IMG/VR virus record: IMGVR_UViG_3300017741_002088 | Coordinates: 1 to 52,467 of that record | Reading direction: 5' to 3' (one strand) | Origin: a virus | DNA: 52,467 nucleotides | In this document: positions 1-44,817 of the stretch, piece after piece | How positions within the stretch are numbered: the stretch's first letter is position 1 | How the letters are laid out: each line of letters opens with the position of its first letter | Notes under the pieces: generated by a model | Seen by the model: the letters and a program-made list of their open reading frames with translations, nothing else | Database searches by the model: none | Told to the model about the DNA's origin: nothing | Program-made: the position numbers and the translations under genes

Positions 1-2745
1 GATCCGAAACAGGTCGAAGTTCAAATTATGAGGGATGGTACATCAGATGGTTCTGGTAACTTTACTGTCAGTATCCCATCGGCATATGCACTTGATAATG
101 CAGGCGACTGGTTATTCTTTGTAGATTCTGCTGGAGGTGGATTGATTGACAACTCTACTCTTAGCGGTTTGACAACAGGTTCAAATACAACAACTGTAAC
201 AGGATTACCAGCAAACAGACCAGTCAAAGCATATGTTTATGGTTCTACCACATCCCCTGTCGTTCGTGCAAAAACTATTGTATCAAATGTGACAGTGACT
301 ACTTCTGTTGTAACAGATCCTATCAGCGGTGAAAAATATATTCCGCTGGGTAAACCAGATATTAGATCGATTGCTGAAGTTCGCGATACGAATTCAACTG
401 GTGCAGATATTGCTTACAAATTCAAACTTGACAATGGCCAACGTGATAACTTCTATGGTCATGGTCGTATGGTACTCAATTCTGGTCAATCAGCACCTTC
501 GGGTAATGTTTTTGTAAAGTTTGATCACTTCAATCATGGTAATGGTAACTTCTTTTCAGCAAGTTCTTACACAGGGGTTGTAAACTACAAAGACATTCCA
601 TATCATGTTCTTAAAACAGGTTTGCGGATTAATCTACGAGACGTCCTTGATTTCCGTCCAGTTATGGATACAACAATCAATACGTTCAGCGAAGCAGATA
701 TTGCATATCTTCCGCAACCATCTGACTTAATTACGTCGGATAATACTTACTATCTCCCTCGTACATATAAACTTGTGATCGATAAAGACGCTAATCTAAA
801 CGTGATCAATGGTGATGCTGGGTTCTATCCGGAACCACCACAAAAATCAGAAAACACTTTACCACTTTACAACTTCCGACTTGGTGGTAACACATTAGAC
901 GACTCTGATGTATCAGTTCAAAAAATTGAACATCGTCGTTATACAATGCAAGATATTGGACATCTAGAAAAAAGAATTAACAATCTAGAAGAATTAACTT
1001 CTTTGTCTATGCTCGAACTAGGAACTAATAACTTTGAAGTCTTAGATAGCGCAGGATTGAATCGTACTAAGTCAGGATTCTTTGTAGATAACTTTACATC
1101 ACACATCTTATCAGCAACAGAGCAAAATGATTATCGCGCTGCTATTGATCCGACTGTTGGGTTGATTCGTCCTACATTTACTGATGACAACATTCGTATG
1201 ATTTTTGACTCTGATAATTCAACAAGTGTTGTGAGAAAAGGTGATAACATCTACGTCGCGCACACTGAAGTTGATTTCATGAACAACCCATTTGCCACAA
1301 AGAAAGTAAAGATTAATCCTTTCACCTCATCAGTATATGAGGGTTCACTTGTTCTTTCACCTGCTTCTGATGAATGGCATGATAAGAACGTTGGAAGTAG
1401 AACAGTCATTGATGGTGGTTCAAAACTTAGTACAGTTCGTGCATACAACTGGGATAACTGGTCATGGAACTGGGGCGGTAAAGACATCGAAGACTTGAAA
1501 GTCGGTGATGGTACTAACACAATCAGTAAGACTAGCGGAAGAACTACTACTAATTCTGTGAACAAAATTGTATCAGAATCAGTTGTTGAAGAAGTTATTG
1601 GCGAAAGAATTTTGCAAATTGCGATCCTACCATTTATTAGGTCTAGAATCGTAAGAATTAAGGCAAGAGGACTTCGCCCGAATTCAAATGTGTTCTTATT
1701 CATGGACAATAAAAACATGAAAGACTTTGTTCGTGAACAAGCATTTAAGAGATATTCAAAGGACACTAAAGATTTTGGTAACACATTACGAGGAAAAACT
1801 TCCCACAAAGATGGTTCTACTGCATTGACAACAGACGCATCTGGTAAAGTTGATATTTCATTCCAAGTTCCTAACAATAGCACGTTCAGGTTTAGAGCGG
1901 GAACTAAAGAAATAAAACTTATGGATATTGATGTGAACCGTGAAGAATTGTCAGGTACGATTGCAAGAGCAATATATACTGCTCAAGGTTTCCTCGATAC
2001 CGTTCATCAAGATATTAGGTCTACTCGTGTTCTTGAAGTAGAGGGTAAAAAATCAACAACAGTTCGTGCAGTGTCATATAATAATGACGGTGGCGGTGAT
2101 GGTGGCGGCACAGGCGGTGGCGTCAGTTGGTTGAATCCTGATGAACATGAAGAAAAATTTGGTACAAGAAATAATAACAGACAAGGTCATAACCTTGGAG
2201 CGATGGGACTTGGTTGGCCAGATGAACTATCTCACCCACCAACCCAAAGTGATCCTGGTCCATCTTCTAAAATTATTTGTACAGCACTTCACCAAATGGG
2301 TCTACTCCCATATGATATCTTTGCCGCTGACCAAGAGTATGGTCGGAAACTTGCAGTAACAGATCCTGATATTGTTGAAGGATATCATTTGTGGGCACAA
2401 ATTGTAGTAGATTGGATGAATGGCGTTGAAGATGCACCAAATATTATGCCATGGGTCAAAGATGATGCTGAACGTATCGAACGCACAAGTCAGTGGGCAG
2501 TAAGATGGGCGCAAGCAATCGCAACTCCATGGGCAGTTCAAATGGCACATGAAATGGGAATACGAGAAAAAGGCAGCAAACTTGGTAAATTCTTGATGAT
2601 GGTTGGTTATCCAATATCTAAGATGGTTGCTAAAACAGGCAAACCGAATCCAGTAAGCATGCTTGCAATATTTGCAGTTCTTCGCTTAATCGTCTCCCTC
2701 AATATGAAGAATAAATACATCGATAATACAGTGGAGCAGAAATAA
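1..2745 (+). CDS. Tail/baseplate structural protein, 5' partial
   Basis: The frame is open to the left edge, so the protein begins outside the window; 914 codons are visible. The middle part (around PFIRSR and RGLRPNSNVFLFMD, near residue 560) resembles the large tail-fibre/baseplate-type structural proteins of marine T4-like phages. A Gly/Asp-rich linker (GGGDGGGTGGG, about 2089-2124) then leads to a separate helical C-terminal domain of about 200 residues with WAQIVVDWMNG and ICTALHQMGLLP. In related phages I recall the segment after the linker being followed directly by a DPLAQ-type domain, which here begins the next gene. Stop and next start share one base (TAATG), implying translational coupling and late co-expression. 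The exact tail component is inferred. Confidence 0.7.
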   Translation, partial: DPKQVEVQIMRDGTSDGSGNFTVSIPSAYALDNAGDWLFFVDSAGGGLIDNSTLSGLTTGSNTTTVTGLPANRPVKAYVYGSTTSPVVRAKTIVSNVTVTTSVVTDPISGEKYIPLGKPDIRSIAEVRDTNSTGADIAYKFKLDNGQRDNFYGHGRMVLNSGQSAPSGNVFVKFDHFNHGNGNFFSASSYTGVVNYKDIPYHVLKTGLRINLRDVLDFRPVMDTTINTFSEADIAYLPQPSDLITSDNTYYLPRTYKLVIDKDANLNVINGDAGFYPEPPQKSENTLPLYNFRLGGNTLDDSDVSVQKIEHRRYTMQDIGHLEKRINNLEELTSLSMLELGTNNFEVLDSAGLNRTKSGFFVDNFTSHILSATEQNDYRAAIDPTVGLIRPTFTDDNIRMIFDSDNSTSVVRKGDNIYVAHTEVDFMNNPFATKKVKINPFTSSVYEGSLVLSPASDEWHDKNVGSRTVIDGGSKLSTVRAYNWDNWSWNWGGKDIEDLKVGDGTNTISKTSGRTTTNSVNKIVSESVVEEVIGERILQIAILPFIRSRIVRIKARGLRPNSNVFLFMDNKNMKDFVREQAFKRYSKDTKDFGNTLRGKTSHKDGSTALTTDASGKVDISFQVPNNSTFRFRAGTKEIKLMDIDVNREELSGTIARAIYTAQGFLDTVHQDIRSTRVLEVEGKKSTTVRAVSYNNDGGGDGGGTGGGVSWLNPDEHEEKFGTRNNNRQGHNLGAMGLGWPDELSHPPTQSDPGPSSKIICTALHQMGLLPYDIFAADQEYGRKLAVTDPDIVEGYHLWAQIVVDWMNGVEDAPNIMPWVKDDAERIERTSQWAVRWAQAIATPWAVQMAHEMGIREKGSKLGKFLMMVGYPISKMVAKTGKPNPVSMLAIFAVLRLIVSLNMKNKYIDNTVEQK

Positions 2746-4334
2746 TGTCGACAAATAGTTTAGGTTACAAGGTTGGAAAAAATCCACTCGCTCAGTCATT
2801 TTATATCGATGAACCGACTGGATTGTTTTTAACAAAGGTTGATTTGTATTTCGCATCAACATTCAATCCGACTGCAAACCTTCAGTTGCCTGTTTCATTA
2901 CACCTCAGACCAATGGTAAATGGTGTTCCCTCCGATACTGTTATCATTCCTGGTTCAACTGTGTATGTTGCGCACAACTCTGTATCAACCTCAGCGACTG
3001 CTACATCACCAACATCGTTTGAGTTTGAAGAACCAATTTATCTTCAGGGATTGAGTGATTATGCAATAGTTGTATATGCTGAAACTCCTGAATATGAGAT
3101 ATGGATATCAGAAATAGATGAGCAAATCATTGGTTCAGCGTCAGCACGTGTAAATAGAAACCCAAATCTTGGTTCTTTATTTTACTCTCAAAATGGTGCA
3201 ACATTTAGCGCAAACCAAAAGCAAGACCTAAAATTTAATTTGTATCGCGCAAAATTTGACACAACAGTAGCAGGAACTGCTTTAATTGAAAATGCGTCTG
3301 TTCCTCGTAAACTTTTGAATGATAACTCTATTCAAACATTTGCTGGTGATTCATCAGTTCGTGTGAGAAGTACAAATCATGGTTTACAAGTAAATGATAC
3401 TGTTTCAATTGAAAATGCAATTGCTGTGGGTGGATTAACTCCAGCACAATTAAATACAGATCACACTATAACAAAAATTGATCTTGGTGGGTTTGAATTT
3501 AAACCAGCAAATGCTCTTGCTGACTCTGATGCAGTCGGTGGTGGATCAAATATCTTAGCGACGCAAAACTTAGCATATTCAATTATGTATCCGAATATCG
3601 CTTCGATTAAACCTGTTGGGACTTCAATGTTTGCTTCATTCAAAGGAACTTCTGGTAAGTCTATGGCAGGAACAGAAACACCATACACAGTAGATGCAGA
3701 CTATTCACCTATCCTTTTGAATAAAAATAACGTTTCACTTGATCACAATTATGTGGTTGCTGCTGACTCTATTGCAGATGCTGAAATTTCTATCGGTGCA
3801 AAAACAGCAATGTTTAAATTTGACATGTCAACGACGAATGAATTCGTTTCACCTATGATTGACTTACAAAGAACATCTATAACAGTAGTCGATAACATTA
3901 TCGATAATCAAGACAGTGCTGCTACTCTAGGATTTAACGTGCCACTTCGATATGTTTCTGAAAATGAACCAACGAGTGGATCAAGTGCAGCAAAACATAT
4001 CACGAGCAGTGTTCAATTAGGAACTGAGGCAGTTGGATTAAAAGTTTTGATCACTGCGCATCGTCCTAAAGAAGCAGACTTCGATGTTTATTTTAGAACA
4101 GGCGTTGACGGTGATATCTTAAACACCGTGAGATACCAACTTGCTTCAAAAGAAGCAAACCTACCATCAGATCAAAACACGAATATTTACCGTGAGTATG
4201 AATATCTTATCGGTGGGCGAGGCGGTACTCTTCCTGCATTCACGCAGTTTCAATTGAAGATTGTTTTCAGGTCTACAAACTCAGCAAGGGTTCCAATCAT
4301 AAAAGATCTAAGAGCAATTGCGCTTGGCGTTTAA
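2745..4334 (+). CDS. Tail structural protein (DPLAQ-type second half)
   Basis: A 529-residue beta-rich protein starting at the ATG that overlaps the previous stop. The N-terminus (KNPLAQSFYIDEPTGLFLTK) and the block around residues 105-165 (YEIWISEIDEQIIGSASA, then KQDLKFNLYRAKF) match a domain known in large tail/baseplate proteins of marine T4-like phages. The end (PAFTQFQLKIVFRS, then VPIIKDLRAIAL) is the usual C-terminus of that protein. Here it is a separate cistron from the upstream half, so the tail protein looks split. Presumed virion component; position in the tail not determined. Confidence 0.7.
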   Translation: MSTNSLGYKVGKNPLAQSFYIDEPTGLFLTKVDLYFASTFNPTANLQLPVSLHLRPMVNGVPSDTVIIPGSTVYVAHNSVSTSATATSPTSFEFEEPIYLQGLSDYAIVVYAETPEYEIWISEIDEQIIGSASARVNRNPNLGSLFYSQNGATFSANQKQDLKFNLYRAKFDTTVAGTALIENASVPRKLLNDNSIQTFAGDSSVRVRSTNHGLQVNDTVSIENAIAVGGLTPAQLNTDHTITKIDLGGFEFKPANALADSDAVGGGSNILATQNLAYSIMYPNIASIKPVGTSMFASFKGTSGKSMAGTETPYTVDADYSPILLNKNNVSLDHNYVVAADSIADAEISIGAKTAMFKFDMSTTNEFVSPMIDLQRTSITVVDNIIDNQDSAATLGFNVPLRYVSENEPTSGSSAAKHITSSVQLGTEAVGLKVLITAHRPKEADFDVYFRTGVDGDILNTVRYQLASKEANLPSDQNTNIYREYEYLIGGRGGTLPAFTQFQLKIVFRSTNSARVPIIKDLRAIALGV

Positions 4335-5361: not shown

Positions 5362-6033
5362 ATGGCACGTAAAATTCTTATAGACTTAGTTGATGCAGTC
5401 GGCACATTTGTCTCTAAAACAAACACATTATCAGATTATTTCGGAGACTTAGATAATCTTGACAGTTCATTTATTCATGCTGATTCCAGTATTGTTTCAG
5501 CACTGAATAGACTCAGCGATCAATATGACTCAATCAGCAATAGATTATTTGGTCAACCTCCAGGAAACTTATTGGTAACAGGATTGACTGGGGATAGTGG
5601 AGTGTTCAACACATTGCGTGTTGGTAAATTAACTGCTGACTCTGCAACGATCGATAGTGCTACAATTGGAAACTTACATGTTTCTGGTACATTCACTGCT
5701 GATAGTGCAAGGTTTGATCAAATTTATGTCGATAGTATCGCAGTCAGTAATGGTGCAGCACTTTATATTGACAGTGCAGTTATCAATTCAAAAGTAAATA
5801 TCACAAACCTAACAATTGATTCAGCGACAATCAAGACTCTATCGGTGGGTGAAGTTATCGCTGACAGTGCGACAATAGACTCGGCGACTATCACAGATTT
5901 GACTGTAACGTCATTAACAATAGATGGAATCGAACTTGATAATGTCAAACGATTTACTGTAAAAGAAGAATCAGGAACGATAGTTTTAGATGGTTACTTC
6001 TTATCTACAGCGGATTCTGCGCAGGTGGCATAA
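5362..6033 (+). CDS. DSAT-repeat tail fibre-like protein
   Basis: A 223-residue protein with a clear SD (AGAGGAAG) before the ATG. The N-terminus (residues 1-70, SDYFGDLDNLDSSF) parallels the preceding gene. Residues 90-190 are a regular series built on ADSATIDSATIGNLHVSG with strand-turn periodicity, consistent with a beta-helical fibre shaft. The C-terminal segment is acidic. It lies in the late tail cluster and its stop overlaps the next start. The exact fibre role is not known. Confidence 0.6.
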   Translation: MARKILIDLVDAVGTFVSKTNTLSDYFGDLDNLDSSFIHADSSIVSALNRLSDQYDSISNRLFGQPPGNLLVTGLTGDSGVFNTLRVGKLTADSATIDSATIGNLHVSGTFTADSARFDQIYVDSIAVSNGAALYIDSAVINSKVNITNLTIDSATIKTLSVGEVIADSATIDSATITDLTVTSLTIDGIELDNVKRFTVKEESGTIVLDGYFLSTADSAQVA

Positions 6034-6983
6034 TGACACTTTATAGACCTATAGTATCAGACGGAAGCAGAAGAATAAAAGAGTGTACATCTTCAACACT
6101 CAATGCTATGTACAAACGCATAGCATATCTTTATGTTCAAAATCCTTCTGTTATTTTAAGTGTTGTCGCTTCTGGTGGTAATATATCACCAACTATGACA
6201 GACACAAGACTTAAATCTGGTACAGCGAAAAGAAACACTTCAGGGAACTGGCCACAGGTGACTTCATTTCCTAGTCAGGCGCAAACAGGTGAACCGCAAA
6301 CTGTAACTCTTACATATGATAAAATTAATCAGACAACATCAAGTCATGCGACAGTACCAACATATAATTTAAAACCTGTTCGAACAGATGCATCAGGTGT
6401 TAGAGAAATGACTTTCACTGATGTGATCGATTCATTTATTAGTCCAGTTGTGAGCAATATTGTTACTGGTACAACTGACACTTTGGCAGGAGGTGCATAC
6501 TTTATTAGCACAAACACCTCAATATCGAATTGTACAAATTTAGGAACAGTTTATACAGACACTCGAGCAAACGTTTCTGGTTATCTGGCGTCTAACATAG
6601 GTGGGAATAATTCAGTTCAGGATGTTTTCAATTCAACAAACTATCAGTTATTCAGGAATGATGGTGCAGTCGTTGCATATAGAACACCATTGATTATTGA
6701 TGGCACTTCCGGATTGAGACATATGACATTTGCTGAGTTTGATGCATTTTTCCAACCTTTGATTCAAGCATACATTTTTAATCAAGGCGGGAACACACTC
6801 AGATACAATGTAGATGGTAATGGCGTCACAAAAGGAACAGCAATAGTCAATAATGTTCTTACAGGCGGTAATGGAAACTATACTACATACAAAGCATCAG
6901 CAAACGACTATCGTGCGCAAGAATTTCCTAACGGATCAAACTCAGTTGCTAACACATACAGATTAAAGGTGGAAAGAACTTAA
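6033..6983 (+). CDS. Virion structural protein, fibre/appendage type
   Basis: A 316-residue Thr/Ser/Asn-rich protein beginning at a TAATG junction. Two similar halves can be seen: TDASGVREMTFTDVIDSFISPVV near residue 120 and IDGTSGLRHMTFAEFDAFFQPLI near residue 228. An internal duplication is therefore likely. No catalytic motif was found. Position between fibre-like genes suggests a tail appendage or fibre-attachment component; that is inference. Confidence 0.55.
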   Translation: MTLYRPIVSDGSRRIKECTSSTLNAMYKRIAYLYVQNPSVILSVVASGGNISPTMTDTRLKSGTAKRNTSGNWPQVTSFPSQAQTGEPQTVTLTYDKINQTTSSHATVPTYNLKPVRTDASGVREMTFTDVIDSFISPVVSNIVTGTTDTLAGGAYFISTNTSISNCTNLGTVYTDTRANVSGYLASNIGGNNSVQDVFNSTNYQLFRNDGAVVAYRTPLIIDGTSGLRHMTFAEFDAFFQPLIQAYIFNQGGNTLRYNVDGNGVTKGTAIVNNVLTGGNGNYTTYKASANDYRAQEFPNGSNSVANTYRLKVERT

Positions 6984-6985
6984 TT

Positions 6986-7501
6986 ATGGATAATCATGTA
7001 TTCGTTGATGCTTATTTCACTAACAATGAAAGAAGCGTTGTAGAGACAATTTGGTATTCGGAAAGCGAAGATGTTTACAGATCTCATTCTATTGTTGCTG
7101 AAGAAAGTGAAGCAGATTGGATCAAACTATTAGAAACAGTTTCGTTGGATGATTTACACGAACGAACTTATAAAAAGATCGCAGAAGCAAACGAAGAATA
7201 TAAAGAAACTCTAATTGACATTGCAAATAACGATGGTAATGGATGGATCGCCTATAAAGACGACATAAACAGGGATGCTTTAAAAGTGCTCATGAACGTT
7301 ATTTTCGATGAAAACTTATCTGAATCAGATGGTGATGCTAATAAAGAAAAACTGTTTTTGTATAAAATGGAATTCTTTGAAAGAGATTTTGTTAAGAAGT
7401 CAACCAACAAAGAACTGAAACGAAATCTCAGAAAAGCAAAGTCTATGATCGAAGCAACGCAAATTGCTTGTCTTTTATATAATGAATCAGAGTTTTCGTA
7501 A
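6986..7501 (+). CDS. Conserved-looking hypothetical protein closing the left tail cluster
   Basis: A 171-residue acidic, mostly helical protein without signal peptide or membrane segment. It is rich in Glu, Asp and Lys (a DDINRDALKVLMNVIFDENL helix near residue 90). Its last 15 bases overlap the end of the convergent radical SAM gene, so this junction marks the edge of the reverse-strand island. I do not recognise the family. Possible roles include a tail assembly chaperone, but nothing in the sequence shows this. Confidence 0.55.
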   Translation: MDNHVFVDAYFTNNERSVVETIWYSESEDVYRSHSIVAEESEADWIKLLETVSLDDLHERTYKKIAEANEEYKETLIDIANNDGNGWIAYKDDINRDALKVLMNVIFDENLSESDGDANKEKLFLYKMEFFERDFVKKSTNKELKRNLRKAKSMIEATQIACLLYNESEFS

Positions 7502-8674
7502 TTCATTTTTCAATTCTGGAACATGATCTAAAATATCAAACCCTCTAATTTTATTCATCTTATTAGTATAGTTCCAAACATCATATAACCAACTTTTGTA
7601 ACCTTTTTCTTCGTAATAACTTATCGGATCAAAAAAGTTTCTGAATGTGGCACGATCACCATAATAATGTTCTAATGGCATAAGTTTCCATAACTGTTCT
7701 TCAACGACTTCTTCAGGCAAATATAAAGGAGAACACCAAGATGGGTGGTGAACAATATTGTGACATTGCATCCATCTTGTGTATGGTTTGTCATGAAAAT
7801 ATTCAAAGATGCGATCTAAAGACCAAAAATTGTACAACGATATTGTAATCATGATTTGAGATTTTATACCAGTTTCTCCATATAAAATCTCCATATTCTT
7901 TGTTATTTTATCCCAATCACCACCTCTGATCCAATTGTAAATGTTTTCTGTACCATCTACCGAAACCATTGCTCTAAGGTTTTTTAACTTTTTGAAAATG
8001 GGTAAGTGTCTTTTTAGCAATCCTTGCATATTAGTTTGTAAATTGATGGTGCAGTCTGGGTTTGTTTCAGAAGCGACTTTCAAAAATTCAATGTGTTTTT
8101 GATCTGCAAGGGGATCTCCACCTTTCATATAAAAAATGTCTAGGTTAGGAATCAGTTTATTAATTTTCTCAGCGTCTTCTTCTGAGAATCTCCACAACTT
8201 ATGATTTACATGACCAAACTCTTTGTCATATTCTAACCACTGATTAGAATGCCTTCCGCTACACATCACACACATTTGATTACATATGTTTGATGCAGCA
8301 ATTTCCAAGAAACGGATTTTATTTTCACCACCACGTTCCCATTTCCAATCATATGTTCCTTTTTTTAAATTTGATCTATACGATTCAAATACAGTATTGT
8401 TACTTCTTTTTGCTGAACCAAAGCATGTGCTGCATGGATAAAAGTTTCCTTGTTCACCTTTATCATATGCATCCCAAACATCCTGATACTCTTCCACCCA
8501 CCACTTTTGAAGATCATCGATGTCAGATATATTCATTGCGGGTTTGAGTCTATTGCCGTTTCGACCAAAATTTCTCATTCTTGAATTGTCTTGGCAACAA
8601 AAGGTTATATTACCTGTGTTGGGTTCTATAGTAATTCCATGAAACGGAATGTAACAATTTTTATCTAAGTCCAA
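7487..8674 (-). CDS. Radical SAM protein (twitch/SPASM-like)
   Basis: A 395-residue protein. The radical SAM cluster motif CxxxCxxC is C131, C135, C138 (CNQMCVMC), followed by a GGDPL motif near residue 186 in the place of the usual GGEPL, which contacts SAM. Further cysteines at C7, C26, C27, C81 and C84 could ligand an auxiliary cluster; the CxxC pair at 81/84 is suggestive. It starts at TTG with an AAGGAA SD and overlaps the end of the upstream glycosyltransferase by 14 bases, as last gene of a reverse operon. The substrate is unknown. Its company (three glycosyltransferase-like proteins and a methyltransferase) suggests modification of a surface glycan, a tail protein or DNA. Confidence 0.8.
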   Translation of the reverse strand: MDLDKNCYIPFHGITIEPNTGNITFCCQDNSRMRNFGRNGNRLKPAMNISDIDDLQKWWVEEYQDVWDAYDKGEQGNFYPCSTCFGSAKRSNNTVFESYRSNLKKGTYDWKWERGGENKIRFLEIAASNICNQMCVMCSGRHSNQWLEYDKEFGHVNHKLWRFSEEDAEKINKLIPNLDIFYMKGGDPLADQKHIEFLKVASETNPDCTINLQTNMQGLLKRHLPIFKKLKNLRAMVSVDGTENIYNWIRGGDWDKITKNMEILYGETGIKSQIMITISLYNFWSLDRIFEYFHDKPYTRWMQCHNIVHHPSWCSPLYLPEEVVEEQLWKLMPLEHYYGDRATFRNFFDPISYYEEKGYKSWLYDVWNYTNKMNKIRGFDILDHVPELKNELRKL

Positions 8675-9431
8675 CTTCGAATTCCTTATTTACTTGATGA
8701 ATGAAATGTGCTCCATCAGTGTATTTTCTGACTTTTGCGTCGAGAATATAATTCCAAGATATACCTATGTCTATCATAGGAATATCATATTTCTCAATTA
8801 TGTAGGAAAAGAATGCCTCATTATTAGGTGTCCAAACTCGGGAAACTTGTTCAGGATATAGGTTATCTTCACATGCCTCTTTATACACCTCAAGGCAACT
8901 TTCGAATCTACCTATCCAATCAAACCTCTTTATAGATTCCTTAGACCCTAACACCACTCCTGTGTTTGCAACCTTCTCAGTTCCTGATAAATCATCAAGT
9001 AAAAGCATAGACTTTTTCAAAGCGCATTTAACCCATACACTCATGGGATGAAAATTATCGTCCTCGAGTTCCCACCTGAAATTTTTCTTATTGAATGCTC
9101 TATGTACATTATAAACACACATCTTAGTTGTATCAAAGTTTTCGAAAATGTTGATGTTAGTTTTTGGGATCACATCAAGATCTAAGTATAACACTTCATC
9201 ATATTCTTGTGAGAGTTCTTGCATCTTTATAAGTTTATAAAACTGAATATCGGCATAGGTTGTAACATCGGGAGTATAAACCATGTAATCAGCATTTGTA
9301 AATTTTGCATAATCACTTTGCCTTTTCTCCAGTTCACCTCTGTGCCTTTTAAATTGACTCTCTTTGTATGGAGTAACAGAATCATGAACTTCTGTTATGT
9401 CGTTCCAGACACTATATACTATTCTTTTCAT
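8661..9431 (-). CDS. Glycosyltransferase-like protein (GT-A, DxD)
   Basis: A 256-residue protein. The start is the ATG at 9431, preceded by a strong AAGGAG; an in-frame codon 21 bases upstream lacks this. The MKRIVYSVW start and the YLDLDVIP motif (DxD, metal and sugar-nucleotide binding) fit a GT-A fold related to GT8/capsular transferases. It resembles the neighbour at 9412-10329, which has MKRLIYSTY and YLDFDVVP, so the two are probably paralogues. It overlaps both neighbours. Donor and acceptor sugars cannot be read from the sequence. Confidence 0.65.
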   Translation of the reverse strand: MKRIVYSVWNDITEVHDSVTPYKESQFKRHRGELEKRQSDYAKFTNADYMVYTPDVTTYADIQFYKLIKMQELSQEYDEVLYLDLDVIPKTNINIFENFDTTKMCVYNVHRAFNKKNFRWELEDDNFHPMSVWVKCALKKSMLLLDDLSGTEKVANTGVVLGSKESIKRFDWIGRFESCLEVYKEACEDNLYPEQVSRVWTPNNEAFFSYIIEKYDIPMIDIGISWNYILDAKVRKYTDGAHFIHQVNKEFEVGLR

Positions 9432-10329
9432 ACCACTCCTTGATGTAGTCAAATCTTTTATTTACTACGTGTACAAACTCACTTCCTTTCGCTACATAAG
9501 GGAATCTTTCATTGAGTATGAAATGTTGCTTTCGTTCAAGTTTGTTGAGTTGAACTTCTTTTTGTTGCATCTTATAACTATACAATGTCTCGTTATCATA
9601 CCCAAACAGTGACTGAATGTACGGTGGCCAACCACCATTTACTTCGGTTACAAGTTCTTTCATCGTAGATAAGTCAAGATCAAATTCTCCAAAGTAATCT
9701 AACTTTTTTATTTGCTCAGAACTTGCTCCAACAATTCCTGTGTTGTATACATCATTATCACCAGAGAAACCCTCGTCAAGAAGCAATGCTCTTGCGTTCC
9801 ACCATTTTGCTCGTGGACTTCTTATAGAATTGGTCCTACCTTTCTCATCATACTTTTTACGCATTTCAGCAAAGAATGCTGGTTCTAATCCTTCAAGGTA
9901 ATTTTTAGGATCTTTCTCATGATTGACTCTACAAAGTATTCCTGAATCAAAATCCCACTCATCGAAAACATTACATTTTGTTAACGGAACCACATCAAAA
10001 TCCAAGTAAAGGATCTGATCATAAGATTTAGAGTATTCTACCATCAACCAATGTTTGTAAAAATTGATTATATCATACTCTGATATCCAAGGTTTATCTT
10101 CAAACCAGTCTTTAAAATGAGCATAGTGAGTACCATACCCAACAAACCTATATTCAACTCCGATGGACTCAGCATACTTTTTTTGCACGCTGATTAACCA
10201 GTCCTGATATTTAAGCATTAGGTTTGTAGTTTCTTTTGTTTTGAAATTACTCCACTCATCATCAGAATGATCTTTATCTATCGTAGAGTCTGAAATATTG
10301 ATGTATGTTGAATAAATTAATCGTTTCAT
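9412..10329 (-). CDS. Glycosyltransferase-like protein (GT-A, DxD)
   Basis: A 305-residue protein starting at the ATG at 10329, which overlaps the methyltransferase stop by four bases (ATGA). The DxD motif lies in LYLDFDVVPLTKCNVF. Aromatic residues and a C-terminal FVHVVNKRFDYI are shared with the 8661-9431 protein (FIHQVNKEFEV), supporting a duplication. Members of this fold transfer sugars from nucleotide donors. The phage also carries a nucleotide-sugar dehydrogenase and epimerase at 43091-44817 that could supply a donor. Confidence 0.65.
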   Translation of the reverse strand: MKRLIYSTYINISDSTIDKDHSDDEWSNFKTKETTNLMLKYQDWLISVQKKYAESIGVEYRFVGYGTHYAHFKDWFEDKPWISEYDIINFYKHWLMVEYSKSYDQILYLDFDVVPLTKCNVFDEWDFDSGILCRVNHEKDPKNYLEGLEPAFFAEMRKKYDEKGRTNSIRSPRAKWWNARALLLDEGFSGDNDVYNTGIVGASSEQIKKLDYFGEFDLDLSTMKELVTEVNGGWPPYIQSLFGYDNETLYSYKMQQKEVQLNKLERKQHFILNERFPYVAKGSEFVHVVNKRFDYIKEWYEKNSI

Positions 10330-10982
10330 CGAGCAATCACCATGTACCGATCCCACTCTCCTATTTTCAATGTGCCTTTATAAAGTATTTTCATCTTCGG
10401 CAATGTTTCTATGAAATGATCAACAGATGTGTGACAGTTAATATGACTGTCTACATCTACCATATTATTAGACTGCAAAGCAACAATCATATTTTCATTT
10501 TTCATCGACAAGACGCTAAAAAGATCTTCGTGGTCTATGTGTTCACATGCTGTACAAATTACGATTTTTTTCTCGTGGTTTCTTTTCTTATCTTCAAATA
10601 ATTCTAATCCATCCATAGCATCTTCATATTTTATGTTACTATGAACTCTGAGTTTTTTAGCAATCTTAATACAGACATCATCCAACTCGAAATTTATTAT
10701 CTCTTTGTCCCACCCATCCTCTACTAAAATGTGTGACATCAACCCATACCAAGACCCAATAATTAAAATCGAATTGTGATTATCTTCATAAAAAGGTTTG
10801 AGTTCTCTAGACAACCATTCTTTACAAGCGATCTGGCCAGTTGAGAAAGAATCAGTAATGTCTTTGATACGGAATAAATCGTAGTCAGGATCATATGCAG
10901 ATTTTTCAAATATGAATCTGAATATGTTCATGATCTTATCAAAGTATAATGGTGTCATGTATTTCATTCTCAAAAGTCCCAT
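10326..10982 (-). CDS. SAM-dependent methyltransferase-like protein
   Basis: About 218 residues. A class I methyltransferase motif I is seen as ILIIGSWYGLMSHIL near residue 73, with acidic motif II (FELDDVC) about 22 residues later and a VICTACEHI strand near residue 140. The start is uncertain: ATG at 10982, or ATG at 10967 giving five fewer residues. Both overlap the upstream glycosyltransferase gene. The protein is coupled to the next gene by ATGA. It may methylate a sugar, a small molecule or protein; no DNA-methyltransferase catalytic motif was seen. Confidence 0.6.
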   Translation of the reverse strand: MGLLRMKYMTPLYFDKIMNIFRFIFEKSAYDPDYDLFRIKDITDSFSTGQIACKEWLSRELKPFYEDNHNSILIIGSWYGLMSHILVEDGWDKEIINFELDDVCIKIAKKLRVHSNIKYEDAMDGLELFEDKKRNHEKKIVICTACEHIDHEDLFSVLSMKNENMIVALQSNNMVDVDSHINCHTSVDHFIETLPKMKILYKGTLKIGEWDRYMVIAR

Positions 10983-11490
10983 GTTCAAGTTTTTGATCCC
11001 AGATATAACGATCCATCCCCTTATATTTTCGAGTGTTGTAGTCTATATTTTTTGCAAAAATGTCCCAATAATTTGTATTCTTTCCGACAGTCCATGTCAT
11101 AATTGAACTGTTTAACATCGTTTCATAGGCATGAGTTTCCCAATACTTATCTTCTTTCCAATAGTCACAAACGAAATGCGGAACATCCCAGTTTATGTTT
11201 TCTAGTGAAGGGAAAGGAGAACTAATAATATCGATATCGAGATCAAACATGACGCACCGAGAACCATGTATAAAACTATCTCCAAATCCTGGTCTGAAAG
11301 CATGTAATTTATTCCACCACTTAGCGAGTTTCGGTTTATTAGGAATTGGAATACAGTCTATTATAACGTTTTCTGGATCTTCAGTAAAGCAATAAATTGG
11401 ATAATCTGTGTATTTTCTCAAACTTACTGCTTGTTGGTTTACGTCTTGTGCTGTATATTTCTTCCCGTGCTTCAATAATATAATGTTCAT
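10939..11490 (-). CDS. Glycosyltransferase-like protein, first gene of reverse island
   Basis: A 183-residue protein with the start MNIILLKHGKKYTAQDVN, a WWNKLHAFRPGF segment near residue 80 and a MFDLDIDI motif near residue 101 that fits the DxD of a GT-A-like fold. It is shorter than the other two and lacks much of a C-terminal domain. It is the promoter-proximal gene of the - strand island, separated by 69 bases from the divergent + strand fibre operon. No clear promoter or strong SD is visible for it, so how the island is transcribed is open. Confidence 0.6.
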   Translation of the reverse strand: MNIILLKHGKKYTAQDVNQQAVSLRKYTDYPIYCFTEDPENVIIDCIPIPNKPKLAKWWNKLHAFRPGFGDSFIHGSRCVMFDLDIDIISSPFPSLENINWDVPHFVCDYWKEDKYWETHAYETMLNSSIMTWTVGKNTNYWDIFAKNIDYNTRKYKGMDRYIWDQKLEHGTFENEIHDTIIL

Positions 11491-11505: not shown

Positions 11506-11513
11506 TATAAATA
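11506..11513 (+). promoter_or_regulatory. T4-type late promoter for the fibre operon
   Basis: Exact TATAAATA, the late -10 element recognised by the gp55 sigma factor in T4-like phages, 47 bases before the ATG at 11560. Transcription would start near 11519-11520. A TATAAT at 11525-11530 lies in the same gap and may be incidental. Confidence 0.65.
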
Positions 11514-31657: not shown

Positions 31658-31689
31658 TTATTAAACCTTGCATAGTCATGGAGGTACAT

Positions 31690-32166
31690 ATGACTGGATT
31701 AGTTTACCCACGCAGTGGGTTCATCGGTTTCGACCACATCTTCGATCAACTTGAGAATATTCACAAGCATGCGAAGGATACCTATCCCCCACACAACGTA
31801 GTAAAAGACGATGAGTTTAAATTCTGTCTAGAACTAGCAGTGGCAGGATTCAAACAAGATCATATCGATATTGAAGTCAAAGACCACGTGTTAACGATCA
31901 AAGGTGATCGCCCACAACGTCGCGAACAAGATAGATATGTTCACAAAGGTATCAGTGCAAGAAACTGGAAAAAGTCATTTAGACTGTCCGAATACACGGA
32001 AGTCATCGGTGCTGATCTACAGGACGGAATATTGACTGTCGACTTAGAAGTCGTCCTTCCTAAAGAAAAGCGACCTCGTAAAATCACAATTGGTCAGAAC
32101 GAGGAAAACGAAAATGACAACAATAGCACTAAAGGGTTACACAACCCTCGCAACAATACTGGGTGA
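31690..32166 (+). CDS. Hsp20 small heat-shock protein
   Basis: 158 residues from the ATG at 31690 behind TGGAGGT. The alpha-crystallin domain spans about 36-135: FKFCLELAVAGFKQDHIDIEV, LTIKGDR and the terminal signature GADLQDGILTVDL (usual GxLxI/V). Such ATP-independent chaperones are conserved in marine T4-like phages, where they are thought to help scaffold or virion assembly. The C-terminus is Asn/Glu-rich. The 5' UTR could pair with the SD (see findings). Confidence 0.9.
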   Translation: MTGLVYPRSGFIGFDHIFDQLENIHKHAKDTYPPHNVVKDDEFKFCLELAVAGFKQDHIDIEVKDHVLTIKGDRPQRREQDRYVHKGISARNWKKSFRLSEYTEVIGADLQDGILTVDLEVVLPKEKRPRKITIGQNEENENDNNSTKGLHNPRNNTG

Positions 32167-32335: not shown

Positions 32336-32462
32336 ATTGTTTAAAATTCTTATGAAAAGAATGTCACAAGATCCAGTAGAACGTTATCTTGCTGAATCAG
32401 AAGACCTAGCAGACCTTGAAAATCGTATGAAATCATTACGTCATAAAGGAATCTGGGTATGA
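32328..32462 (+). CDS. DUF3563-like small protein, GTG start
   Basis: 44 residues starting at GTG, overlapping the previous stop by eight bases, and ending within the pseudoazurin start. The segment RYLAESEDLADLENRMKSLR matches the conserved core of the DUF3563 family (YLAEAxDLxDLExRM) found in proteobacteria and phages. Function unknown. It may help couple translation into the pseudoazurin gene. Confidence 0.6.
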   Translation: MIKLFKILMKRMSQDPVERYLAESEDLADLENRMKSLRHKGIWV

Positions 32463-32890
32463 TGAAAACATTCTTTGCTACTCTTTTAGGATTAGTTTTA
32501 ATTTCTAATATTGCTTATGGCAAAACAATAGAAGTTGAAATGTTGAACAAAGATAGTTCAGGTCGTAAAATGGTATTCAGTCAAGAGGTAGTTCGTGCCG
32601 ATACTGGTGATACAGTAACATGGGTGCCAACATCAAAGGGTCACAACGTAGAAATCGTTGCTGCACCTGATGGTTTTGCTATCCCAAAGAAAAGTAAAAA
32701 TGGCAAAGAAGTCAGTATTGATTTCACAGTGCCAGGAATTTACTATTACTGGTGTACACCGCATAAAGGCATGGGCATGATTGGTCTTGTTGTAGTTGGT
32801 AACGATACATCTAATAAAGATGATATCGCAAAGGCAAAGGCACTAGGCAAATCAAAGAAGAAACTCAAAGAACTTTTGGGTGACCTCTAA
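32459..32890 (+). CDS. Pseudoazurin-type blue copper protein
   Basis: 143 residues with a signal peptide (MMKTFFATLLGLVLISNIAY, cleavage near residue 21), so periplasmic. The mature part matches pseudoazurins: EVEMLNKDSSG, GDTVTWVPTSKGHNVE and WCTPHKGMGMIGLVVVG. All four type 1 copper ligands are present with pseudoazurin spacing: H62, C99, H102, M107. A C-terminal helix pair (KAKALGKSKKKLKELLGDL) is also a pseudoazurin feature. Pseudoazurins carry electrons to copper nitrite reductase, nitrous-oxide reductase or other periplasmic acceptors. SD AAAGGA. A host-derived auxiliary gene. Confidence 0.85.
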   Translation: MMKTFFATLLGLVLISNIAYGKTIEVEMLNKDSSGRKMVFSQEVVRADTGDTVTWVPTSKGHNVEIVAAPDGFAIPKKSKNGKEVSIDFTVPGIYYYWCTPHKGMGMIGLVVVGNDTSNKDDIAKAKALGKSKKKLKELLGDL

Positions 32891-42545: not shown

Positions 42546-43094
42546 ATGAATAAATTACTCGCAATAATTGGTGCTCCAGGAACTGGTAAGACAACCCTCG
42601 TTCGTGAGTGGATGAAGTCACGAAAATGGTCAAAGGATAAACCAGTTGATCTTCTCGACACTCATGTATCGGACGATATTCGGTTGCTTGGTAAATATGA
42701 GCATGATTCTCTCTTCAGCGGTACAGATAAACTGTCTATGGCAGTACAACCGAAAGCAGTAGAATATCTAGACAACCCATCCCCTGTAACTATATTTGAA
42801 GGCGATCGACTGACTTCGATTAAATTCTTTGAAGCAGCGCAGTCAAAAGGATTTGAAATTAAAATCATTCAACTCACTGTTCCCGATGAAGTTAGAGAAC
42901 AACGTTACAAAGAACGTGGTTCAGAACAAAACCCAACTTGGTTGAATGGCAGATTGACAAAAGTTAAAAATGTTTCAAATGCCTTTTCCGGAAACCCTCT
43001 GTTCGATGAACCGAGCATAGTAGAGGAGTGTGAGCATAAAACTCCTGAAGATACAAAATCAATCATAACAATCATTGAGGATTTTATAAAATGA
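42546..43094 (+). CDS. P-loop kinase, candidate hmU DNA kinase
   Basis: 182 residues. Walker A is GAPGTGKTT at 9-17. Next come LLGKYEHDSLFSGTDKLSMA near residue 48, then TIFEGDRL near 81, and an LID-like basic stretch EQRYKERGSEQNPTWLNGR near 118. The FSGTDxLSMAVQP block is what I recall from phage 5-hydroxymethyluracil DNA kinases, which phosphorylate the base in the polymer before substitution. A nucleotide kinase role is the alternative. No SD precedes the ATG and the promoter suggests a leaderless mRNA. ATGA overlap with the next gene. Confidence 0.6.
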   Translation: MNKLLAIIGAPGTGKTTLVREWMKSRKWSKDKPVDLLDTHVSDDIRLLGKYEHDSLFSGTDKLSMAVQPKAVEYLDNPSPVTIFEGDRLTSIKFFEAAQSKGFEIKIIQLTVPDEVREQRYKERGSEQNPTWLNGRLTKVKNVSNAFSGNPLFDEPSIVEECEHKTPEDTKSIITIIEDFIK

Positions 43095-43900
43095 AGATAG
43101 CGATTATTGGACATGGGTTTGTTGGCAAAGCAGTAGATTATGGATTCTCCCATCCGGAGATCCAAAAGATTATTATCGATCCAATTTATGGGTCTAAGAT
43201 TGATAAACGAATTAAAAACTGCCAGTTTATATTTGTTAGTGTACCAACTCCTATGGGAGATGATGGTACGATTGATGACTCTATCCTTCGTGAAGTAATT
43301 AAAGACATCGAGAAGTATAGTCACAACTCGATTATCATTGTCAAAAGCACAGTCATCCCTGAAGTGATCGCTAACCTATCAGATCGTATCGTTTACAATC
43401 CAGAGTTTCTCACAGAGAAAAGCGCAAACGAACAGTTTGTAAATCCTGTGTTTCATATTCTAGGAGGGCATCCTGCTGACTGTACGATGGTCGCAGACTT
43501 CTACGATAAGTATTCGCTATGTAATCACACAGATTTTTATTGTATGACAATTGAAGAAGCATCCTTCACTAAGTATGCCATCAATTGTTTTCTAGCAACT
43601 AAGGTTCTTTTCTTTAATCAGTTGTATGATGCTGCATTAAAAGAAAACAATGTAAACTTCAGCGTTGTCGCAAAAACCGTTGGAGCAGACCCACGCATAA
43701 CACCATCCCATACAAAGGTGCCAGGATTTGATGGTAAACAGGGTTTCGGTGGTGCGTGTTTCCCCAAAGATGTGTCAGCATTTCTTGCTGCATATCCAGA
43801 GATGGGAATCCTTGATTTCGTAAAGAAAACTAATAATGACTATCGGAATCAATATGAAAAGGATTCTCGTGAAATAGAACAAAACATAGATTTTGCTTAA
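43091..43900 (+). CDS. Short UDP-glucose/GDP-mannose dehydrogenase
   Basis: 269 residues against 390-450 for cellular enzymes. The N-terminal Rossmann motif is IIGHGFVGKAV (5-15), then FVSVPTPMG near 55, and VKSTVIP with NPEFLTE near 91-113. Catalytic C223 lies in GFGGACFPKD. The C-terminal nucleotide-sugar domain is largely missing, as in other short phage forms. It oxidises a nucleotide sugar to the uronic acid with NAD. Translationally coupled to the kinase; an epimerase follows. Confidence 0.8.
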   Translation: MKIAIIGHGFVGKAVDYGFSHPEIQKIIIDPIYGSKIDKRIKNCQFIFVSVPTPMGDDGTIDDSILREVIKDIEKYSHNSIIIVKSTVIPEVIANLSDRIVYNPEFLTEKSANEQFVNPVFHILGGHPADCTMVADFYDKYSLCNHTDFYCMTIEEASFTKYAINCFLATKVLFFNQLYDAALKENNVNFSVVAKTVGADPRITPSHTKVPGFDGKQGFGGACFPKDVSAFLAAYPEMGILDFVKKTNNDYRNQYEKDSREIEQNIDFA

Positions 43901-43912
43901 TGGAGGCATTAA

Positions 43913-44074
43913 ATGTCAGCAACTCAAGAATGGATTAAAGAGCAGTTCACTAAAGATTCACCAAGAATCATTACTGAATATTCGTTACAAAAACAAGTCG
44001 ACGATCTTTTAACTCGAGTAAAACAACTTGAAACTGATATGGCGTATAGTGTGAAACCAGAGGAAAGAACTTGA
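43913..44074 (+). CDS. Small coiled-coil protein
   Basis: 53 residues with TGGAGG upstream. Residues 22-45 (EYSLQKQVDDLLTRVKQLE) form a heptad-repeat helix. Its TGA overlaps the TTG start of the epimerase. Function unknown. Confidence 0.55.
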   Translation: MSATQEWIKEQFTKDSPRIITEYSLQKQVDDLLTRVKQLETDMAYSVKPEERT

Positions 44075-44817
44075 GTATTATAATCACGGGATCCGATGGG
44101 TTTATCGGATCCCATTTAACTAAGCATTTCGAAGCAAAAGACATTGAAGTTATACCGTGGGACATCAAGAATGGTGGCACCCAAGATATTCATAACCTGT
44201 TCATTCCCCCAGATGTCACCTTTGTTATTCACCTTGCAGCAATCGCTGACGTTCGAAGAAGTATTCGTGAACCAGATATCTATTGGGAACAAAATGTTCT
44301 AGGAACTAAACATGTTCAAGAGAAATGTGCACAAAAAGATATTCCTTTGTTATATGCTTCATCCTCTTGCGTCCATGCGTGGGGCAAAAGTCCATACGGT
44401 ATGTCAAAGAAAGTAAATGAATTGACTGCGCAACCTGAACAAATTGGAATGAGGTTTACTACAGTCTATGGTGATGGTGCGCGAGACTCTATGTTCATAG
44501 GTAAGTTACAAAGGGGTGAGATAGAATATGTGACAACACACATTCGTGACTTCATCCATGTTTCCGATGTGATTCAAGCGATTGAATTGTTGATGGATAA
44601 CTATGCAACGCTTGAAGAATATTCTTATAACATAGGAACAGGAGTTGGTAATGAAGTTCGTAAACTCGGTGAACTAAATAATTTTTATGGACCAGTCAAA
44701 TCAGGTCATGAATGCGAAGCACTTGATAACACTGCAGACAATTCAGCAATAAGAAAACTAGGATGGAAACAAACAGTTTTTGTTGACGAATATATCAATA
44801 AAGGGTTTACTTTATAG
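44071..44817 (+). CDS. NAD-dependent nucleotide-sugar epimerase/dehydratase
   Basis: 248 residues from TTG, preceded by AGAGGAAAG and overlapping the small gene by four bases. The extended-SDR pattern is TGSDGFIGSH (GxxGxxG, 6-15), HLAAIADVRRS near 54, SSSC near 97 and YGMSKK near 109 (YxxxK). Shorter than the usual 310-330. It acts on a nucleotide sugar, plausibly the product of the preceding dehydrogenase. The resulting donor might feed the glycosyltransferases of the reverse island or glycosylated DNA; both are inference. Confidence 0.8.
   Translation: MSIIITGSDGFIGSHLTKHFEAKDIEVIPWDIKNGGTQDIHNLFIPPDVTFVIHLAAIADVRRSIREPDIYWEQNVLGTKHVQEKCAQKDIPLLYASSSCVHAWGKSPYGMSKKVNELTAQPEQIGMRFTTVYGDGARDSMFIGKLQRGEIEYVTTHIRDFIHVSDVIQAIELLMDNYATLEEYSYNIGTGVGNEVRKLGELNNFYGPVKSGHECEALDNTADNSAIRKLGWKQTVFVDEYINKGFTL

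What the first reader, a model, noticed from the sequence alone, without database searches (positions are those of the whole stretch)
7487..11490. Inverted glycosyltransferase/methyltransferase/radical SAM island inside the tail-fibre cluster
Five overlapping - strand genes interrupt a run of + strand late structural genes. Two of the transferases look like paralogues, and a radical SAM enzyme ends the operon. The set could build or rearrange a sugar on tail fibres, on the host surface (superinfection exclusion) or on DNA. Its convergent overlap with the 6986 gene and divergent promoter region suggest insertion as a module.
Basis: partly seen in the sequence, partly recalled or inferred. Interest (0 to 1): 0.7.

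Follow-up and report, generated by a model that had tools for sequence, protein, structure and literature searches.

The report
Swappable sugar-building cassette beside tail fibres
A marine T4-like phage carries, beside its tail-fibre genes, a compact five-gene enzyme set that looks built to make and decorate a short sugar chain; relatives carry different versions at the same spot, so it probably affects which cells the phage can stick to, although what the sugar is attached to is not yet known.

Summary
Five overlapping minus-strand genes (7487-11490) interrupt the plus-strand tail-fibre run of a T4-like phage. They encode three GT8-like glycosyltransferases (two paralogous; a GT-A fold was modelled for one), a class I methyltransferase fold and a radical SAM enzyme with an N-terminal BtrN-like twitch domain. 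Fold, DxD motifs, sugar-type neighbours in relatives and a nucleotide-sugar dehydrogenase and epimerase in the window support a sugar role. The island is one allele of a known hypervariable locus, the "host recognition cluster" of pelagimyophages (PMC7029224). New here: (1) in a VrlC-anchored sample its core occurs only with the nearby fibre-region gene 6033 (24 of 24 with, 0 of 17 without), with 3-6 joint changes on the tree; (2) it is replaced as a cassette (nearest VrlC relative 69% identical, island 30-36%; AU tests reject one history), with no sign of a mobile element; (3) strand and order vary. Target: I favour the phage's own fibres (about 0.5) over host surface glycan (about 0.33, the published view). 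Against me: island divergence tracks the fibre genes weakly or not at all, and the window's island has no exact late promoter. DNA is an unlikely target. Known kind, useful detail.

The parts
10939..11490 (-). GTa: small GT8-like, GT-A fold glycosyltransferase (183 aa), first gene of the island
   Evidence: PHROG_1962 glycosyltransferase 1.1e-5; AF2 model pLDDT 92.5; VIA matches LARGE1 Z 14.4 (rmsd 3.0, 175 aligned), glycogenin-1 13.9 (2.8, 161), LgtC 13.8 (3.0, 176); D83 and D85 invariant in 40 rows
10326..10967 (-). MT: class I SAM-dependent methyltransferase fold, substrate unknown
   Evidence: No credible Pfam family alone; profile of 54 rows finds a PDB methyltransferase at 4.5e-5; AF2 pLDDT 95.6; VIA Z up to 15.9; Foldseek ranks MtmC and KijD1 at the top, TMq about 0.57-0.62 (that they act on sugars is partly recalled)
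9412..10329 (-). GTb: GT8-like glycosyltransferase
   Evidence: Glyco_transf_8 in 8 of 25 family members at E<=0.01, not in the window member; D112 and D114 invariant in 25 rows
8661..9431 (-). GTc: GT8-like glycosyltransferase, paralogue of GTb
   Evidence: PF01501 4.8e-4; 5 of 13 members; D86 and D88 invariant in 13 rows; BLASTP to GTb 2e-28
7487..8674 (-). radical SAM enzyme with N-terminal auxiliary-cluster (twitch) domain
   Evidence: PF04055 5.4e-11; NF033640 above cut-off; C131, C135, C138 invariant in 37 rows; C7 and C26 invariant, C27, C81, C84 nearly so, in 20 rows; N-terminal profile matches the BtrN C-terminal domain at 2.7e-5
6986..7501 (+). g6986: 171-aa gene that borders the island, convergent overlap of 15 nt
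   Evidence: present in 21 of 21 core-positive loci of the VrlC-anchored subset with >=8 kb downstream, and in 5 of 14 core-negative ones
6033..6983 (+). g6033: fibre-region protein, co-occurring with the island core
   Evidence: 24 of 24 core-positive and 0 of 17 core-negative loci; lies among collagen-like fibre ORFs in L168 and L214
11560..11904 (+). g11560: tail-fibre assembly-type gene on the other border
   Evidence: phrog_3304 'L-shaped tail fiber protein assembly' 2.8e-15; phrog_1084, unknown function, 1.4e-23
11506..11513 (+). T4-type late promoter motif (TATAAATA) before g11560
   Evidence: exact motif within 120 bp upstream in 50 of 56 distinct g11560 upstream regions, 2.3 expected from shuffles
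28..4334 (+). VrlC, two ORFs in the window: left border of the host recognition cluster
   Evidence: phrog_358; ORF 2745-4334 matches annotated VrlC of HTVC008M and others, and Mosig 'putative VrlC'
43091..43900 (+). nucleotide-sugar dehydrogenase (UDP-glucose 6-dehydrogenase-like), possible donor supply
   Evidence: TIGR03026 3.2e-38, below its cut-off
44071..44817 (+). NAD-dependent sugar-nucleotide epimerase type, possible donor supply
   Evidence: GalE-type hit 2e-19, below cut-off; 41-42% identical to epimerases between g6986 and g6033 homologues in L219 and Mosig

Best explanation
The island is one allele of a fibre-linked, replaceable glycan-tailoring cassette in the host recognition cluster of a T4-like, pelagimyophage-like virus. 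Shown by computation: enzymes of these families or folds, one slot, co-occurrence with gene 6033, cassette exchange. Inferred: the phage's dehydrogenase and epimerase help make a UDP-sugar donor; GTa, GTb and GTc add two or three sugars one after another; MT methylates, and the radical SAM enzyme oxidises or epimerises, a sugar (BtrN-like chemistry). Inferred and least certain: the acceptor is the virion's own fibre or fibre-tip protein encoded nearby, so that the cassette sets a fibre glycotype that is re-assorted between phages by recombination in the conserved flanks.
For: Families, folds and motifs. Same slot: core genes downstream of gene 6033 in 54 of 80 loci anchored on that gene; 8 have at least 3 kb without them and 18 are too short. 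Co-occurrence with g6033: 24 of 24 against 0 of 17 in a VrlC-anchored sample, with 6 joint changes on the best VrlC tree, 3 of them forced by starred branches; Fisher test on the 8-kb subset, g6033 or g6986 against core, p=2.8e-5. In 50,697 phage records the only match for GTb and the only match for g6033 is Mosig. Exchange: L222 has VrlC 69% but island 30-36%, L013 has VrlC 39% but GTa 72%; AU tests reject one history. Slot genes of relatives include carbamoyltransferase, DegT aminotransferase, sulfotransferase and further methyltransferases. No membrane-like stretch: highest Kyte-Doolittle mean over 19 residues is 1.07 in the five proteins. The late-promoter motif faces the island gene on 12 of 44 divergent sides in relatives, about 1.8 expected. 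Second-best PDB match of the radical SAM profile is cytosylglucuronate decarboxylase.
Against: No direct evidence of the acceptor. Divergence of GTa does not track g6033 or g6986 once VrlC is allowed for (partial Mantel 0.06, p 0.16; 0.07, p 0.095), MT does only weakly (0.18 each, p 0.003 and 0.001), and GTa tracks VrlC more (0.33, p 0.001) (82 of 127 loci). The window's island has no exact late promoter on its strand, and over all arrangements GTa (3 of 159 upstream regions, 5.3 expected) and rSAM (0 of 165, 3.7 expected) show no excess; MT does (15 of 111, 2.9 expected). Co-occurrence is confounded by adjacency and clade: 3 firmly supported independent contrasts, sign test p 0.25. The published view is host O-chain modification (PMC7029224). 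In one architecture g6033 lies about 23 kb from GTb or no GTb is on the contig.
Confidence: 0.5

Rival explanations
1. The cassette modifies the host's surface glycan (LPS O-chain) during infection and blocks adsorption of competing or sister phages; it travels with the fibre genes because both concern the same host glycan.
For: Published reading for GT8-rich pelagimyophages (PMC7029224, passages). GT8 includes the LPS enzyme LgtC, which is among GTa's best fold matches. The weak sequence tracking between island and fibre genes fits an indirect link.
Against: No membrane-like protein among the five and no flippase-type family hit. Late-promoter motifs on some relatives' island side would be late for exclusion. 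The 3 relatives of GTb found in genome contigs lie on phage-like contigs, not in host LPS loci (one scan, pattern-limited).
Confidence: 0.33
2. The cassette glycosylates or hypermodifies phage DNA; the window's TET/JBP oxygenase would create the hydroxyl acceptor.
For: A TET/JBP gene lies at 38956-40311 (PF12851 7.8e-21).
Against: TET/JBP was found in 1 of 18 island-bearing records (this window) and in 2 of 8 records without the core (many records are fragments). The island sits and exchanges with fibre-region genes.
Confidence: 0.05
3. The radical SAM enzyme is the main actor and modifies a peptide (a fibre or a RiPP-like product), with the transferases adding to the modified residue.
For: After NF033640, several NCBIfam matches, all below cut-off in the window, are peptide maturases, and SkfB is the top PDB match of the profile.
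Against: A radical SAM gene was found anywhere in the locus in only 31 of 54 loci that have GT/MT core genes. The N-terminal domain matches BtrN, a cyclitol dehydrogenase (recalled).
Confidence: 0.1

Closest known systems
Host recognition cluster (HRC) of pelagimyophages (Zaragoza-Solas et al. 2020, PMC7029224; passages seen)
   Same: Hypervariable region between VrlC and the neck gene, with tail fibres, GT8 glycosyltransferases and radical SAM cassettes, in T4-like marine phages
   Different: In the passages I saw there is no fixed GTa-MT-GTb/GTc core tied to one fibre-region gene, no switching of strand, and no tree conflict with VrlC
Pelagibacter phage Mosig EXVC030M, genes Mosig_00082 to 00097
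   Same: Homologues of GTb, g6986, g6033 and VrlC; annotated methyltransferase and molybdenum-cofactor-type (MoaA) genes and an epimerase in the same slot
   Different: Much larger island (carbamoyltransferase, aminotransferase, nitroreductases); GTb only 35% identical; GTa, MT, GTc and rSAM of the window gave no tblastn match at 1e-5 there
GT8 family (glycogenin, LgtC, LARGE1)
   Same: GT-A fold with DxD; predicted structure of GTa aligns at Z about 14
   Different: About 9-14% identity; GTa is only 183 aa; window members score below Pfam's cut-off
BtrN
   Same: Auxiliary-cluster (twitch) domain matches at 2.7e-5
   Different: N-terminal here, C-terminal in BtrN; the whole protein belongs to NF033640, whose substrate I do not know
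Mycobacteriophage virion glycosylation (Freeman et al. 2023; seen only as cited in PMC12619734)
   Same: Precedent for glycans on phage virion proteins
   Different: Capsid and tail-tube subunits of Mycobacterium phages, not fibres of marine T4-like phages

Membership tests
Pelagimyophage host recognition cluster (PMC7029224) | Lies downstream of VrlC within the structural region | tested here: met
   VrlC at 28-4334, island about 3.2 kb further on
Pelagimyophage host recognition cluster (PMC7029224) | Bounded on the other side by the neck gene gp14 | not tested
   I did not look for the neck gene in the window
Pelagimyophage host recognition cluster (PMC7029224) | Hypervariable, with tail fibres and glycosyltransferases | tested here: met
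Pelagimyophage host recognition cluster (PMC7029224) | Host is SAR11 | not testable with these tools
   Only the isolate Mosig links such an island to Pelagibacter
GT8 / GT-A glycosyltransferase | GT-A fold | tested here: met
   GTa only: AF2 plus VIA, LARGE1 Z 14.4, glycogenin-1 13.9, LgtC 13.8; GTb and GTc not modelled
GT8 / GT-A glycosyltransferase | Conserved DxD | tested here: met
   Invariant Asp pairs in 40, 25 and 13 rows
GT8 / GT-A glycosyltransferase | Score above the Pfam GT8 cut-off | tested here: not met
   GTc 20.2 and GTb 11.6 bits against 24.3; GTa no hit: I therefore say GT8-like
Class I SAM-dependent methyltransferase | Class I fold | tested here: met
   AF2 pLDDT 95.6; VIA Z up to 15.9
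Class I SAM-dependent methyltransferase | Methyl transfer activity | not testable with these tools
   none
NF033640 N_Twi_rSAM | Score above curated cut-off | tested here: met
   184.3 against 170 bits over residues 6-390
NF033640 N_Twi_rSAM | CxxxCxxC plus N-terminal twitch cysteines | tested here: met
gtr-type seroconversion cassette | Flippase and bactoprenol glucosyltransferase membrane proteins (recalled) | tested here: not met
   No membrane-like stretch in the five proteins, no such family hit
Mobile element insertion | Integrase or transposase, end repeats, tRNA target | tested here: not met
   No tRNA; none in the proteins tested (one search shows only 25 of 50 families of the rest); border repeats unremarkable

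The most novel reading that the evidence does not exclude
T4-like marine phages carry an exchangeable fibre-glycosylation locus: each phage builds its own methylated, radical-SAM-tailored glycan on its fibre proteins, and phages swap these cassettes together with a fibre gene, giving a carbohydrate layer of phage antigenicity and host range that protein sequence does not show.
Probability: 0.3. Interest if true: 0.75.

Novelty: new member of a known kind. Interest (0 to 1): 0.42.

Why it matters
Phages of SAR11-type bacteria are very common in the sea, and their hypervariable host recognition clusters are usually read as lists of auxiliary genes. A recurring enzyme core tied to one fibre-region gene and swapped as a cassette makes a clear, testable question: is the sugar on the virion or on the host? 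Either answer bears on host range and on competition between phages. The isolate Mosig makes it testable now.

Tried and rejected
Single-protein searches found few relatives, so alignments were used. The radical SAM alignment found only L003's contig again. PADLOC found no defence family. Solved-structure search by sequence gave nothing for GTb and nothing significant for GTa and GTc.

A mobile-element reading was rejected. Imperfect inverted pairs of 17 nt link gene 6986 with the GTa end: three such 17-mer pairs, reached in 2 of 200 base shuffles, but 7 of 96 coding segments elsewhere in the window do as well, so I give them no weight. A DNA-modification reading was weakened. Close co-evolution of island and g6033/g6986 sequences was tested and mostly failed. 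DSA-type motifs of the fibres as glycosylation sites were considered and not tested. A late promoter on the window's island strand was looked for and not found. Transcriptomes in PMC12753301 concern HTVC022P and HTVC027P; HTVC008M and glycosyltransferase gave no hit in it. The Mosig announcement PMC7892664 gave no hit for five terms on these genes.

GTb and GTc profiles overlap, so those labels are not always separable in relatives. In one search the 54 loci with core were counted whatever their length; 'radical SAM' was counted anywhere in the locus. Of the 8 longer loci without core, I read ORFs of two (L168, L214), where g6033 lies at the far end among fibre ORFs; the GTb profile is found in 1 of the 8 records (that of L206). 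L210's record also has both far apart. Five records with GTa and MT labels (L151, L152, L156, L158, L162) have no GTb match. Of 20 GTb-anchored loci without g6033 in the locus, 3 have it elsewhere on the record; many of the rest are cut short, but in L072 and L082 gene 6986 is followed by VrlC with no g6033 between. Two of 14 core-negative records have distant GT8-like hits (6.0e-9 and 1.3e-8). Groups for the AU tests were named after the trees were seen, and long branches (L235, L258) are present; 2 of the 20 loci chosen (L009, L030) lacked a needed gene and were dropped from the trees. PMC10783043 (phages of Alphaproteobacteria) appeared in a listing and was not opened.
Full report
What is there. 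The window is a virus record of 52,467 bases with T4-type genes: VrlC (28-4334), UvsW-type helicase, gp46/47-like genes and DNA polymerase, and matches to UvsY, clamp, clamp-loader and UvsX. The best match of its VrlC in annotated phages is Pelagibacter phage Mosig (34.5% identity), a Kyanoviridae; the host of the window itself is not known. The five minus-strand genes at 7487-11490 are real, tightly overlapping and in the order GTa, MT, GTb, GTc, rSAM.

What the genes encode. GTa: weak PHROG glycosyltransferase match, confident model (pLDDT 92.5), GT-A fold nearest to LARGE1 (Z 14.4), glycogenin-1 (13.9) and LgtC (13.8) (Foldseek), invariant DxD. GTb and GTc: paralogues (2e-28), GT8-like by sequence in 8 of 25 and 5 of 13 family members at E<=0.01, with invariant Asp pairs; below Pfam's cut-off in the window. 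MT: class I methyltransferase fold (pLDDT 95.6; Z up to 15.9), no credible Pfam family on its own. rSAM: NF033640 above cut-off; 31 of 37 relatives match that family at E<=1e-5. A profile of its N-terminal 100 residues (20 rows) matches the C-terminal domain of BtrN (2.7e-5), so the twitch domain lies at the other end of the protein; the NCBI family name appears to say the same.

Same slot, variable content. In a sample anchored on gene 6033, not on the island (best 80 of 462), 54 loci have GT/MT core genes downstream, 8 have at least 3 kb of sequence without them, and 18 without them are shorter. In the 54, core genes are all opposite to gene 6033 in 28, all in the same direction in 20, and mixed in 6; both GTa and MT are present in 49; a radical SAM gene is somewhere in the locus in 31. 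Between gene 6986 or 6033 and gene 11560, 78 loci gave 56 rows that differ in length or arrangement (a few of these have no core). Of 71 non-redundant extra ORFs there, Pfam matches (25 of 27 families shown) include SPASM, radical SAM, carbamoyltransferase, TauD, Asp/Arg hydroxylase, QueC, DegT aminotransferase, sulfotransferases and methyltransferases.

Tied to a fibre-region gene. The best VrlC tree needs 6 joint changes, of which 3 are forced by starred branches; the 3 independent contrasts agree, too few for significance. In the subset with 8 kb, 21 loci have 6033, 6986 and core, 9 have none, 5 have 6986 alone. Whole-record searches of the 14 core-negative records found no MT match and two distant GT8-like matches. 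Among 50,697 phage records the only match for GTb (E<=0.01), and the only one for gene 6033 (E<=1e-5), is Mosig. The three MAG contigs with GTb also carry genes 6033 and 6986, so they look like phage contigs. The tie is not absolute in position: in one architecture gene 6033 lies at the far end of the cluster.

Replaced as a cassette. L222 is the nearest VrlC relative held (69%), and gene 5362 is 63% identical, but gene 6033 is 44%, gene 6986 33% and the island 30-36%. L013 is the reverse: VrlC 39%, GTa 72%, gene 11560 79%. Trees of VrlC and of GTa+MT+GTb (19 rows) conflict: holding the VrlC clade together on the island data costs 214 log-likelihood units (AU p 3.6e-108), and the converse 148 (p 6.9e-69) (groups named after seeing the trees). 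Over 82 loci, GTa and VrlC distances still correlate (0.32), so exchange is frequent but not complete.

Timing. TATAAATA is a good late-promoter marker here: 50 of 56 distinct gene-11560 upstream regions have it, 2.3 expected. In 29 divergent regions it faces the island gene on 12 of 44 sides (about 1.8 expected) and gene 11560 on 12 of 12 (some contigs occur twice in opposite orientation). Over all arrangements, MT has an excess (15 of 111, 2.9 expected), GTa (3 of 159, 5.3 expected) and rSAM (0 of 165, 3.7 expected) do not. The window's island side has none. Late expression is therefore likely in some relatives and unproven in the window.

What it modifies. Possible sugar supply exists in the window: a nucleotide-sugar dehydrogenase (43091-43900) and an epimerase (44071-44817), the latter 41-42% identical to epimerases that lie between the 6986 and 6033 homologues in L219 and Mosig. 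Fibre proteins and host surface cannot be told apart by sequence: both predict linkage to fibre genes. Divergence of GTa does not follow genes 6033 or 6986 once VrlC is allowed for, and MT follows only weakly, which is against a tightly matched enzyme-substrate pair. DNA is unlikely: the TET/JBP gene is in 1 of 18 island-bearing records and 2 of 8 without the core. I favour virion fibres at about 0.5 because of position, apparently soluble enzymes and late promoters in some relatives; the published preference is the host O-chain (PMC7029224, passages).

Prior knowledge. PMC7029224 describes the host recognition cluster, its GT8 genes and radical SAM cassettes. In the rows shown by my other paper searches (some lists were capped) I saw no other paper on this combination in pelagimyophages; most subscription journals are not held. 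The finding is a member of a known kind with new detail.

Noticed in passing
window 38956-40311 (+): TET/JBP-type 2OG oxygenase in a T4-like marine phage; also in the Melnitz and C48C1 records but in none of the 17 other island-bearing records searched.
   Followed up: partly
window 32459-32890 and 31678-32166 (+): Plastocyanin/azurin-type copper protein and HSP20 matches among the window's genes (assigned to these ORFs by reading the translations).
   Followed up: no
L095, L098, L100, L216: Three radical SAM-type genes in a row inside the slot, up to five in one slot (L098); SPASM matches in 9 of 71 other slot ORFs suggest some split enzymes.
   Followed up: no
L168 and L214: Gene 6033 homologue embedded among fibre ORFs with long collagen-like GFTGSKGD repeats, with no GT genes beside it.
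   Followed up: partly
L224:15729-16484 (+): PP-loop ATPase-like ORF, by eye; QueC matches occur in 3 of 71 slot ORFs of other loci.
   Followed up: no
L219, L220, L221: Contigs filed under bacterial MAGs that carry tail-fibre-region phage genes, probably phage contigs binned with bacteria.
   Followed up: partly
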